DNA from: Streptomyces hyderabadensis
GTDB lineage: Bacteria > Actinomycetota > Actinomycetes > Streptomycetales > Streptomycetaceae
Reading direction: 5' to 3'
NCBI RefSeq assembly: GCF_020404845.1
Contig: NZ_JAIOJZ010000003.1
Coordinates: 186,001-250,000 of the forward strand
Length of the DNA: 64,000 nt
In this document: piece by piece, positions 15,841 through 18,176 of the stretch
Position numbering within the stretch: position 1 is the stretch's first letter
How the letters are laid out: each line of letters opens with the position of its first letter
Notes under the pieces: generated by a model
Seen by the model: only the letters and a program-made list of their open reading frames with translations
Databases searched by the model: none
Told to the model about the DNA's origin: nothing
Position numbers and translations under genes: made by a program

Positions 15841-16893
15841 ATGGACGCGTACGACAAGGGCTCGGGCGCCCGGCATGGGCATGATGACCCGGGCGAGCCG
15901 GCCCGACCGGACGACGAAGCCGATTCGGCGGAGACCGCCGCCGTTCCGCCGGCAGCCGGTGCCCCGTCGGCAGCCCGTGCTCCGGAGGAAGCCGCCGCTT
16001 CGGCGGAGGCCGGTGTCCCGGAGGTAGCTGGTGTTCTGGAGGAAGCCGGTGCTCCGGAGGAAGCCGATGCCCCGCAGGAGGCCGGTGTCCCGGGGGCAGC
16101 TGGTGCTTCGGCGGAGGCCGGTGTTCCGGGGGCAGCCGGTGCTTCGGAGGAGGCCGGTGTCCCGGAGGGGGCCGGGGCCGCGCGGGCTGTGCCTGGCCCC
16201 GGGCAGCCCCCCGCCCCCCGTACCGGGGTCGCCGCGCTCTCCCCGCGTTATCAGGTCGGTGCCGTGGTCGCGCTCGCGGTGGTCGCGGTCGCCGTGTGCG
16301 CCCACATAGGTCTGGTGTTCCTGCACGTGGCCCCGTCCAACACCCTCACCAAGCAGCACGGTGACGTGGTGGACGAGTGGGTCTTCCCGGAGTTCGAGCA
16401 GAACTGGAAGCTCTTCGCGCCCAACCCGCTCCAGCAGAACGTCTCCGTCCAGGTCCGCGCGGAGGTCAGCACGGCCGGGGGCGAGATACGGACGACCGGC
16501 TGGTACGACCTGTCCGCCGAGGACGGCCGGGCCATCGACGGCAATCCGCTGCCGAGCCACACCCAGCAGAACGAACTGCGCCGGGCCTGGGACTTCTTCG
16601 TCGCCAGCCACGACTCCGACGACCGCCCGGTGGGCCTGCGGGGCACCCTCTCCGAGACGTATCTGCGGCGCATCGCGCTCCTGCGGCTTGACCGCGACGG
16701 CGCCGCCGGACCCGGCGGTGTCGTCGAGCGCGTGCAGTACCGTTCCCGGACCACGAACGTGGAGCCGCCCCCCTGGAGCGGTGAGAAGGTCTCCGACCGC
16801 CCGATCGTCCGCGAGCTGCCCTGGTGGTCGGTGTCCGCGGAGAACCGGGGCGCGAGCGCCGGACAGGCCGAGCGGGAAGGGGGCGCCGCGTGA
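15841..16893 (+). CDS. DUF5819 family membrane protein with twelve hexapeptide repeats
   Basis: A 350-residue protein. After a charged start, residues 38-109 are twelve six-residue repeats rich in Glu, Ala, Gly, Val and Pro (pattern xAGxPx), encoded by a near-perfect 18-bp tandem DNA repeat. One membrane helix (~140-162, GAVVALAVVAVAVCAHIG) follows, then the DUF5819 domain (~165-330) with WKLFAPNPLQQN. ATG 15841 follows a weak GGGGCGGA site; the frame is open upstream to 15778. Its stop overlaps the HTTM start (GTGA), so the two are very probably coupled and work together. Function is unknown. Confidence 0.85.
   Translation: MDAYDKGSGARHGHDDPGEPARPDDEADSAETAAVPPAAGAPSAARAPEEAAASAEAGVPEVAGVLEEAGAPEEADAPQEAGVPGAAGASAEAGVPGAAGASEEAGVPEGAGAARAVPGPGQPPAPRTGVAALSPRYQVGAVVALAVVAVAVCAHIGLVFLHVAPSNTLTKQHGDVVDEWVFPEFEQNWKLFAPNPLQQNVSVQVRAEVSTAGGEIRTTGWYDLSAEDGRAIDGNPLPSHTQQNELRRAWDFFVASHDSDDRPVGLRGTLSETYLRRIALLRLDRDGAAGPGGVVERVQYRSRTTNVEPPPWSGEKVSDRPIVRELPWWSVSAENRGASAGQAEREGGAA
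15952..16167 (+). repeat. Twelve tandem 18-bp repeats inside the DUF5819 gene
   Basis: Twelve in-frame units close to gaggccggtgtcccggag alternate with forms beginning gcagc or gaagc. They end exactly at 16167. Most variation is at third positions or swaps Glu for Ala, so the hexapeptide rhythm is kept. Confidence 0.9.
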
Positions 16894-18176
16894 ACGCCGC
16901 CGTCCTCTGCGTCTCCCGCGGCATCGCCCGCGTCACGGGCGCCGCGCTCGGCCCGTACCAGACGGCCGTGATCCGCATCGGCTTCAGCGCCACCTGGCTG
17001 CTCTTCCTGCTGCGCGAACTGCCGCACCGGGGCGAGCTGTACGGGCCGGACAGCCCCTGGAGCCACGACCTCGCCGAGCAACTGATCGCGGACAACGGCT
17101 CCTTCACGGCGCTGATGTGGTCGGACGGGCGGGCCTGGTTCGAGATCGTCTACGCGCTGGCCGTCCTGAGCAGCGTGCTGCTCCTGCTCGGCTGGCGCAC
17201 CCGGACCATGTCCGTGCTGTTCATGGTCGGGGTGCTCTCGCTGCAGAACCGCAGCGTCTTCATGGGGGACGGCGGCGACAACGTCATCCACCTGATGAGC
17301 ATCTACCTGGTCCTGACCCGGTGCGGCCAGGTGTGGTCGCTGGACGCGCGCCGGGCCCGGCGCGCGGCGGCGGCACGCGCGCGGGGCGAGCGCGTCGCGG
17401 ACCGGGTCGGGCCCGTGCTGTGGTGCGCCTCCGGGTTCCTGCTGCTCACGGTGACGCTGGCGGGCGGTCTCGACGGCGACTGGTTCGTCCCGGCGCTGCT
17501 GTGGGCGGTGTGGCTCGCGCTGGGTGTGTGGTGGGCCGTGGGGAGGAGCGCGGAGGGCAGCCAGCCGCGGATCCTGCTGGACGTGGTCACCAACGTCGTG
17601 CACAACGGCGCACTGGTCGTGATCATGGCCGAGGCGTGTCTGATCTACGCGACGGCCGGCTGGTACAAGATCCAGGGCTCGCGCTGGCAGGACGGCACGG
17701 CCGTCTACTACCCGCTGCACCTGGACTACTTCTCGCCGTGGCCCGCGCTCTCCGACGCGCTGGCCGCCAACGGCACGATGGTCATGCTCATCACGTACGG
17801 CACGGTCGCCGTGCAGGTCGCCTTCCCGTTCACGCTGTTCAACCGGCGGGTCAAGAACGTGCTGCTCGCCGCGATGATGATCGAGCACGCGGTGATCGCC
17901 GTGACGCTCGGACTGCCGTTCTTCTCGCTGGCGATGATCGCCGCCGACGCGGTCTTCCTGCCCACCTCGTTCCTGCGCCGGCTGGGCGGCTGGGCGGCCC
18001 GCGCGCGAGGCCGGCTGTCCGGCCGCGGACCCGCCGGGAACCCCGCGGACGGGCGCGCGACGGTGCCGGGTCCCAGGACCCGTGCGGGTACGGCCGGGGG
18101 AACGGCCGGAACGGCCGCAGCGGGCACGGCGGACGGGAAGGACCCCGAGCACACCCGCGTAGGCTTCCGGGCATGA
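16890..18176 (+). CDS. HTTM domain membrane protein
   Basis: A 428-residue polytopic membrane protein with several hydrophobic helices (for example ~95-115, ~180-200, ~230-250 and ~300-325). It belongs to the HTTM family, which is related to the membrane part of vitamin K-dependent gamma-glutamyl carboxylase. The family-typical stretch GWYKIQGSRWQDGTAVYY is present. Its reaction is unknown; a catalytic lysine equivalent cannot be assigned by eye. GTG 16890 overlaps the DUF5819 stop, and its own stop overlaps the SpoU start. The tail (~375-428) is Ala/Gly/Thr-rich and probably disordered. Confidence 0.87.
   Translation: MNAAVLCVSRGIARVTGAALGPYQTAVIRIGFSATWLLFLLRELPHRGELYGPDSPWSHDLAEQLIADNGSFTALMWSDGRAWFEIVYALAVLSSVLLLLGWRTRTMSVLFMVGVLSLQNRSVFMGDGGDNVIHLMSIYLVLTRCGQVWSLDARRARRAAAARARGERVADRVGPVLWCASGFLLLTVTLAGGLDGDWFVPALLWAVWLALGVWWAVGRSAEGSQPRILLDVVTNVVHNGALVVIMAEACLIYATAGWYKIQGSRWQDGTAVYYPLHLDYFSPWPALSDALAANGTMVMLITYGTVAVQVAFPFTLFNRRVKNVLLAAMMIEHAVIAVTLGLPFFSLAMIAADAVFLPTSFLRRLGGWAARARGRLSGRGPAGNPADGRATVPGPRTRAGTAGGTAGTAAAGTADGKDPEHTRVGFRA

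What the first reader, a model, noticed from the sequence alone, without database searches (positions are those of the whole stretch)
15841..18176. DUF5819-HTTM coupled pair with twelve Glu/Ala hexapeptide repeats
An HTTM protein (related to gamma-glutamyl carboxylase) starts inside the stop of a DUF5819 protein that carries twelve in-frame 18-bp repeats. Several repeats contain Glu-Glu or Glu-Ala pairs. A substrate-enzyme pair is conceivable, although the repeats may lie on the cytoplasmic side. The pair and the SpoU gene are translationally coupled.
Basis: partly seen in the sequence, partly recalled or inferred. Interest (0 to 1): 0.6.

Follow-up and report, generated by a model that had tools for sequence, protein, structure and literature searches.

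The report
Split vitamin-K-carboxylase-like membrane enzyme pair
Nearly every Streptomyces carries two overlapping genes that look like one membrane enzyme cut in two, related to the human enzyme that uses vitamin K to activate clotting factors; the eye-catching repeats in the first protein are only a variable tail and probably not the enzyme's substrate.

Summary
A DUF5819 gene (15841-16893) carries about twelve in-frame 18-bp repeats, and an HTTM gene (16890-18176) starts inside its stop codon. The substrate reading does not hold: orthologues have tails of about 15 to over 150 residues, unrelated repeats or none, and sometimes no Glu. SpoU is not a constant neighbour.

The pair is a real unit. 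DUF5819 occurs in 148 of 150 Streptomyces, and in a phylum sample all 21 DUF5819 places lie beside an HTTM gene.

The HTTM model matches human vitamin-K carboxylase GGCX (Z 15.2, GGCX residues 45-339) and keeps catalytic Lys218 as Lys260. GGCX's Glu-binding Asn159-His160 is replaced by an almost constant Gly-Asp. DUF5819 appears to supply the missing part: ninth helix, pocket linker (NWKLFAPNP) and outer domain. Natural HTTM-WxMFAP fusions support this; the direct DUF5819-GGCX fold match is weak (Z 3.5). SdpA/SdpB looks like the same design.

Most likely it is a two-subunit, quinone-using membrane enzyme that modifies secreted proteins, probably not by Glu carboxylation. A paralogous pair sits directly after a secreted ice-binding-like protein in 9 of 9 loci examined. 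Chemistry and substrate are inferred.

The parts
15841..16893 (+). DUF5819 protein, 350 aa: disordered repeat tail, one membrane helix, extracytoplasmic domain (putative second subunit)
   Evidence: PF19136 1.1e-66; AF2 model of aa 128-350, mean pLDDT 84.8
15954..16168 (+). about 12 in-frame copies of an 18-bp unit in the N-terminal tail; lineage-specific, not conserved
   Evidence: variation among orthologues
16243..16329 (+). single membrane helix of DUF5819 (aa 135-163), proposed equivalent of GGCX TM9
   Evidence: AF2 helix 8-36 of the model; hydropathy peak 2.75
16402..16428 (+). NWKLFAPNP motif (aa 188-196), proposed equivalent of the GGCX pocket linker S398-W399-D-M401-M402
   Evidence: N, W, K, L, F, A, P and the final P invariant in 59 Streptomyces sequences, the second N nearly so; N/S/G-W-x-L/M/F-F pattern shared with distant partners, SdpA and natural fusions
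16429..16857 (+). extracytoplasmic alpha/beta domain of DUF5819 (aa 197-339)
   Evidence: AF2; weak match to GGCX 404-493, Z 3.5
16890..16893 (+). GTGA start/stop overlap coupling HTTM to DUF5819
   Evidence: the same RTGA overlap in most orthologous and several non-Streptomyces pairs
16890..18176 (+). HTTM protein, 428 aa, equivalent of GGCX TM1-TM8 (proposed catalytic subunit)
   Evidence: PF05090; TIGR04033 SdpB family 5.2e-15, below cut-off; 16 GGCX chains top the fold comparison, Z 10.3-15.2
17274..17279 (+). Gly129-Asp130, replacing GGCX Asn159-His160
   Evidence: alignment of DUF5819-linked, SdpB, fused and VKGC HTTMs
17667..17669 (+). Lys260, equivalent of the GGCX catalytic base Lys218
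   Evidence: role of K218 from PMC12589487
18173..18952 (+). SpoU-family methyltransferase gene, overlapping neighbour, not judged part of the system
   Evidence: PF00588; detected in 40 of 72 full-length orthologous loci

Best explanation
DUF5819 and HTTM are the two subunits of one membrane enzyme of the vitamin-K-carboxylase (VKGC/GGCX) superfamily. HTTM supplies TM1-TM8, the quinone pocket and the catalytic lysine (K260 = K218). DUF5819 supplies in trans the ninth helix, the pocket-lining linker (NWKLFAPNP) and the outer substrate-binding domain, which in VKGC are fused to the HTTM part. Translational overlap keeps the two in step. Shown by computation: gene pairing, the HTTM fold and the conserved lysine. 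Inferred with moderate support: that DUF5819 is the missing GGCX part. Inferred only: that the pair oxidises menaquinol and uses the resulting strong base to take a proton from a secreted protein. Because the Glu-binding Asn-His is replaced by Gly-Asp, the modification is probably not Glu gamma-carboxylation. The hexapeptide repeats are a fast-changing, probably dispensable cytoplasmic tail.
For: Pairing: 148 of 150 Streptomyces have DUF5819. All 21 DUF5819 places in a 296-genome phylum sample lie beside an HTTM gene, and all 16 DUF5819 genomes have HTTM (P 1.4e-13). HTTM follows directly in 79 of 80 named Streptomyces loci, the 80th contig ending just downstream. Distances of the two proteins correlate across 16 diverse pairs, Mantel r 0.95, 0 of 5000 permutations as high. 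HTTM = GGCX TM1-8: only GGCX sequences are hit in the PDB, Foldseek ranks 1-16 are all GGCX, Z 10.3-15.2 against 7.0 for the next. K260 is invariant in A3 and lies on K218. DUF5819 = remainder: natural fusions HTTM-TM-WxMFAP (L071, L074, L075) align with VKGC over full length at E 3e-16, driven by the HTTM part, with WxMFAP falling near VKGC's WxMM. The C-terminal part of the fusions matches distant DUF5819-like partners (E 1e-8) and DUF5819 (E 3.5e-5). The DUF5819 model's comparison lists GGCX 404-493, right after its linker, as rank 2. Secreted substrate: an ice-binding-like secreted protein lies just upstream on the same strand in 9 of 9 paralogous loci; genome-level association P 9e-12.
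Against: Direct sequence-profile comparison of DUF5819 with the VKGC lumenal region is not significant. The fold match is weak (Z 3.5, rmsd 4.5 over 88 residues, tied with unrelated beta proteins) and Foldseek alone found nothing significant. No complex was predicted. Quinone binding, catalysis and any modification are untested. Mantel and pairing statistics partly reflect shared ancestry. The one fetched Streptomyces locus of the L022 type (L194) shows no obvious secreted partner, and no substrate is known for the core pair in the window.
Confidence: 0.66

Rival explanations
1. One reading: HTTM gamma-carboxylates the Glu residues of the DUF5819 hexapeptide repeats in cis (substrate-enzyme pair).
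For: HTTM is a GGCX relative with the base lysine; the repeats hold Glu; the genes are coupled.
Against: Repeat tails vary from about 15 residues upward, with unrelated units in 34 of 93 orthologues and no Glu in several. The tail precedes the membrane helix, so it should be cytoplasmic, opposite GGCX's active site. The Glu-binding Asn-His is replaced by Gly-Asp. The conserved part of DUF5819 is the helix, motif and outer domain.
Confidence: 0.03
2. DUF5819 is a separate chaperone, anchor or regulator of HTTM, not the structural equivalent of GGCX TM9 and lumenal domain; HTTM alone forms the active site.
For: Direct DUF5819-VKGC homology is not significant; HTTM alone already covers GGCX TM1-8 with the base lysine.
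Against: GGCX's vitamin K and Glu pockets are lined by the TMD-PBD linker (M401, M402; PMC12589487), and HTTM here has no counterpart of it. Natural fusions place the DUF5819-like part at that position.
Confidence: 0.2
3. Bacteriocin-type maturation or export pair like SdpA/SdpB, with transport or processing rather than quinone chemistry as its role.
For: HTTM scores 5.2e-15 with the SdpB model. Streptomyces SdpA/SdpB pairs have the same order and overlapping genes and a similar TM plus GWAFFTKSP motif. SdpA is the best weak profile partner (E 0.003-0.025).
Against: The SdpB score is below the curated cut-off and no SdpA is found in this genome. The pair is near-universal in Streptomyces and no conserved small precursor gene was seen next to the core pair (open frames of 80 aa or more). 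SdpB itself keeps the GGCX base lysine, so this is not exclusive of the best explanation.
Confidence: 0.11

Closest known systems
Vitamin K-dependent gamma-glutamyl carboxylase (GGCX/VKGC)
   Same: HTTM fold with Z up to 15.2; K218 equivalent kept as K260, W223 as W266, A214 as A256, F299 as F345; a W-x-hydrophobic-hydrophobic motif in the partner comparable with S398-W399-x-M401-M402.
   Different: Two chains instead of one; Asn159-His160 replaced by Gly129-Asp130; K217 replaced by Tyr259; no PF22777 lumenal domain found in this genome; outer domain much diverged.
SdpA/SdpB (Bacillus subtilis sdpABC; PF17418 and TIGR04033)
   Same: Small single-TM partner gene followed by an overlapping HTTM gene; Gly-Asp and Lys positions shared.
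   Different: SdpB model score far below cut-off; no SdpA family match in this genome; core pair not tied to a small toxin precursor.
DUF5819 (PF19136) and HTTM (PF05090) families
   Same: Both proteins pass the curated cut-offs in hmmscan.
   Different: I found no paper in the open-access library that mentions DUF5819, nor one that proposes the two families as a split enzyme.

Membership tests
VKGC/GGCX gamma-glutamyl carboxylase | HTTM transmembrane fold | tested here: met
   Foldseek ranks 1-16 all GGCX; Z 10.3-15.2, model 6-396 on GGCX 45-339
VKGC/GGCX gamma-glutamyl carboxylase | catalytic base Lys218 | tested here: met
   K260, invariant in 40 Streptomyces HTTMs and aligned on K218
VKGC/GGCX gamma-glutamyl carboxylase | Glu-binding Asn159-His160 | tested here: not met
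   Gly129-Asp130 here, Gly-Asp in nearly all DUF5819-linked, SdpB and fused HTTMs; Asn-His in all ten bacterial VKGCs compared
VKGC/GGCX gamma-glutamyl carboxylase | lumenal domain (PF22777) in the same chain | tested here: not met
   HTTM ends after TM8 plus a low-confidence tail; no PF22777 match in this genome
VKGC/GGCX gamma-glutamyl carboxylase | lumenal-domain fold supplied by DUF5819 | tested here: inconclusive
   Z 3.5 to GGCX 404-493; profile comparison not significant; bridged by natural fusions
VKGC/GGCX gamma-glutamyl carboxylase | Glu carboxylation coupled to vitamin K epoxidation | not testable with these tools
   needs biochemistry
HTTM (PF05090) | score above Pfam cut-off | tested here: met
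   35.4 bits against 27.7
DUF5819 (PF19136) | score above Pfam cut-off | tested here: met
   225 bits against 27.1
SdpB (TIGR04033) | score above NCBIfam cut-off | tested here: not met
   55.8 bits against 178.4
SdpA (PF17418) | partner belongs to the SdpA family | tested here: not met
   DUF5819 protein hits only PF19136; no PF17418 match in this genome

The most novel reading that the evidence does not exclude
HTTM proteins in general are two-part quinone-dependent enzymes. A small single-helix partner with a W-x-L/M/F-F motif (DUF5819, SdpA, fused WxMFAP domains, the VKGC lumenal part) completes the pocket and selects a secreted substrate. Nearly all Streptomyces run such a non-carboxylating, quinone-powered modification of secreted proteins, and SdpA/SdpB toxin maturation works the same way.
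Probability: 0.35. Interest if true: 0.82.

Novelty: new variant of a known kind. Interest (0 to 1): 0.62.

Why it matters
GGCX is, to my knowledge, the only well-understood member of the HTTM superfamily. If the partner subunit is its missing half, a near-universal but uncharacterised gene pair of Streptomyces becomes a concrete enzyme hypothesis with named residues to mutate, and the unexplained need for SdpA and SdpB in making the SDP toxin gains a testable mechanism. The paralogous three-gene cassette (secreted ice-binding-like protein, DUF5819, HTTM) offers a natural substrate candidate for mass spectrometry.

Tried and rejected
Glu-repeat substrate model: rejected on repeat and tail variability, expected topology and loss of the Asn-His pair. 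SpoU as third member: found in only 40 of 72 loci. The rhodanese and J-domain genes upstream in the window appear in only 4 of 72. Direct hhalign of DUF5819 with the VKGC lumenal region: forward E 0.05-0.13, reversed controls 0.10-0.59, so no signal; with SdpA: forward 0.003-0.025, reversed 0.05-0.52, so weak. Foldseek of the DUF5819 model: no significant match. Positive-inside count around the DUF5819 helix: mean 1.07 K+R before and 1.51 after, no clear orientation signal, so topology rests on the GGCX analogy. Ice-binding-like protein as substrate of the window's own pair: none found in this genome, though none of the 14 control genomes rang either. Papers: none mentions DUF5819.

Full report
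What is there. The window lies in a Streptomyces genome: the genome search draws its same-genus set from a group whose member L010 is 99% identical at this protein to a named Streptomyces record. DUF5819 occupies 15841-16893 and HTTM 16890-18176 in a GTGA overlap; SpoU follows at 18173 in an ATGA overlap. The repeat array at 15954-16168 has 11.9 copies of 18 bp and is far from chance.

The repeats are not the point. In 107 Streptomyces sequences the tail before the membrane helix has a median of 46 residues and a minimum of 15; lengths above about 200 are unreliable because the start codon was chosen by a simple rule. Of 93 tails long enough to test, 34 carry tandem arrays (this one included), with unrelated units such as APGPS, PHGYRT or PAEPGG. 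Four of the 107 have no Glu, and several more are under 3% Glu. What is conserved is the helix, the NWKLFAPNP motif and the domain after it.

The pair is a unit. DUF5819 was found in 148 of 150 Streptomyces and in 16 of 296 genomes across the phylum. All 21 DUF5819 places in the phylum sample have an HTTM gene next to them: 20 were seen from coordinates or neighbouring frames. The last, G263, has an HTTM gene directly before it in reversed order (E 3.4e-18). In most pairs the HTTM start overlaps the DUF5819 stop as ATGA or GTGA, including pairs outside Streptomyces. In 80 named Streptomyces loci HTTM is adjacent in 79; the 80th contig ends about 230 bases after the DUF5819 gene. Protein distances correlate strongly, although shared ancestry contributes to that.

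HTTM is the GGCX membrane domain. phmmer against the whole PDB returns only GGCX, with weak E-values of 0.07 and above. The AF2 model (mean pLDDT 72.9) has GGCX chains as Foldseek ranks 1-16 (best E 1.2e-3, probability 1.00). In the structural realignment the GGCX chains give Z 10.3-15.2 over model residues 6-396 and GGCX 45-339, against 7.0 for the best other chain. In the alignments K260 falls on K218, W266 on W223, A256 on A214 and F345 on F299. K218 is the base that deprotonates vitamin K hydroquinone, and W223, A214 and F299 line its pocket (PMC12589487). K260 is kept in DUF5819-linked, SdpB-type, fused and VKGC HTTMs, with one Arg (L018). GGCX N159-H160, which hold the substrate Glu (PMC12589487), are Asn-His in the bacterial VKGCs but Gly-Asp in almost every split or WxMFAP-fused HTTM; L075 reads otherwise. 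This is the main reason to doubt carboxylation.

DUF5819 as the missing part. GGCX has nine helices; after TM9 a linker with S398, M401 and M402 lines the pocket, followed by the lumenal domain. HTTM here ends after the TM8 equivalent. DUF5819 has one helix, then NWKLFAPNP, then an alpha/beta domain. Three lines link them. First, natural fusions L071, L074 and L075 continue from HTTM through one more helix into WxMFAP. Against VKGC they align with E 3e-16, mostly from the HTTM part, and the WxMFAP region falls near VKGC's WxMM; their C-terminal parts match distant DUF5819-like proteins (E 1e-8) and DUF5819 (E 3.5e-5). Second, the realignment of the DUF5819 model lists GGCX 404-493 as rank 2, the part expected, but with Z 3.5, tied with tissue factor and others, so only suggestive. 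Third, several other HTTM loci carry an adjacent or fused protein with a similar motif. Direct profile comparison of DUF5819 with the VKGC lumenal region is not significant. I therefore call this likely, not shown.

Relation to SdpA/SdpB. Nine of 150 Streptomyces carry SdpA-family proteins; their order, overlap and motif (GWAFFTKSP) mirror DUF5819-HTTM. Profile similarity SdpA-DUF5819 is weak but above reversed controls. yitPOM and sdpABC make secreted peptide toxins, and a YitP/YitO-dependent processing step has been suggested (PMC6818787). Linaridin peptide clusters also carry an HTTM protein of unclear role (PMC9927463). These precedents point to secreted peptides or proteins as substrates.

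A substrate lead. In nine Streptomyces loci with a second, divergent DUF5819-HTTM pair, the gene before it on the same strand encodes a secreted ice-binding-like domain (PF11999, E 2.6e-56) with a long Gly/Thr/Asn/His-rich tail; domain-to-domain gaps are 680-973 bp. In the three such loci read in detail (L185, L186, L188) hardly any other neighbour was shared with the rest. Ice-binding domains occur in 34 of 150 Streptomyces, and 28 of those 34 have two or more DUF5819 copies, against 49 of all 150 (P 9e-12). In G214 a choice-of-anchor G surface protein lies between two pairs. The window's genome shows no ice-binding match, so the core pair's substrate is unknown.

Mechanism and confidence. 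I commit to a two-subunit quinone-dependent enzyme acting on secreted proteins (0.66), with the exact chemistry open. A VKOR homologue, which could in principle recycle an oxidised quinone, is present in this genome, but many bacteria have one for disulfide formation. The finding is ordinary as a repeat and interesting as a split enzyme.

Noticed in passing
L185-L193 (Streptomyces, second DUF5819-HTTM pair): A secreted ice-binding-like protein with a repetitive Gly/Thr/Asn/His-rich tail lies directly upstream of the paralogous pair in 9 of 9 loci, making a three-gene cassette.
   Followed up: partly
L071, L074, L075: HTTM proteins fused to an extra helix and a WxMFAP domain, natural single-chain versions of the pair.
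   Followed up: partly
L195 (G214:C1): Two DUF5819-HTTM pairs flank a 594-aa choice-of-anchor G surface protein with an LPSTG signal.
   Followed up: no
L184 (G263:C36): DUF5819-like gene with reversed order, lying after its HTTM gene.
   Followed up: yes
L183 (G000:C143:14129-14536): VKOR homologue in the window's genome, unlinked to the pair.
   Followed up: no
L080: HTTM protein whose C-terminal part resembles a DCC-type thiol-disulfide domain, next to a small protein with a WYMFSHVEP motif (recognised by eye, not tested).
   Followed up: no
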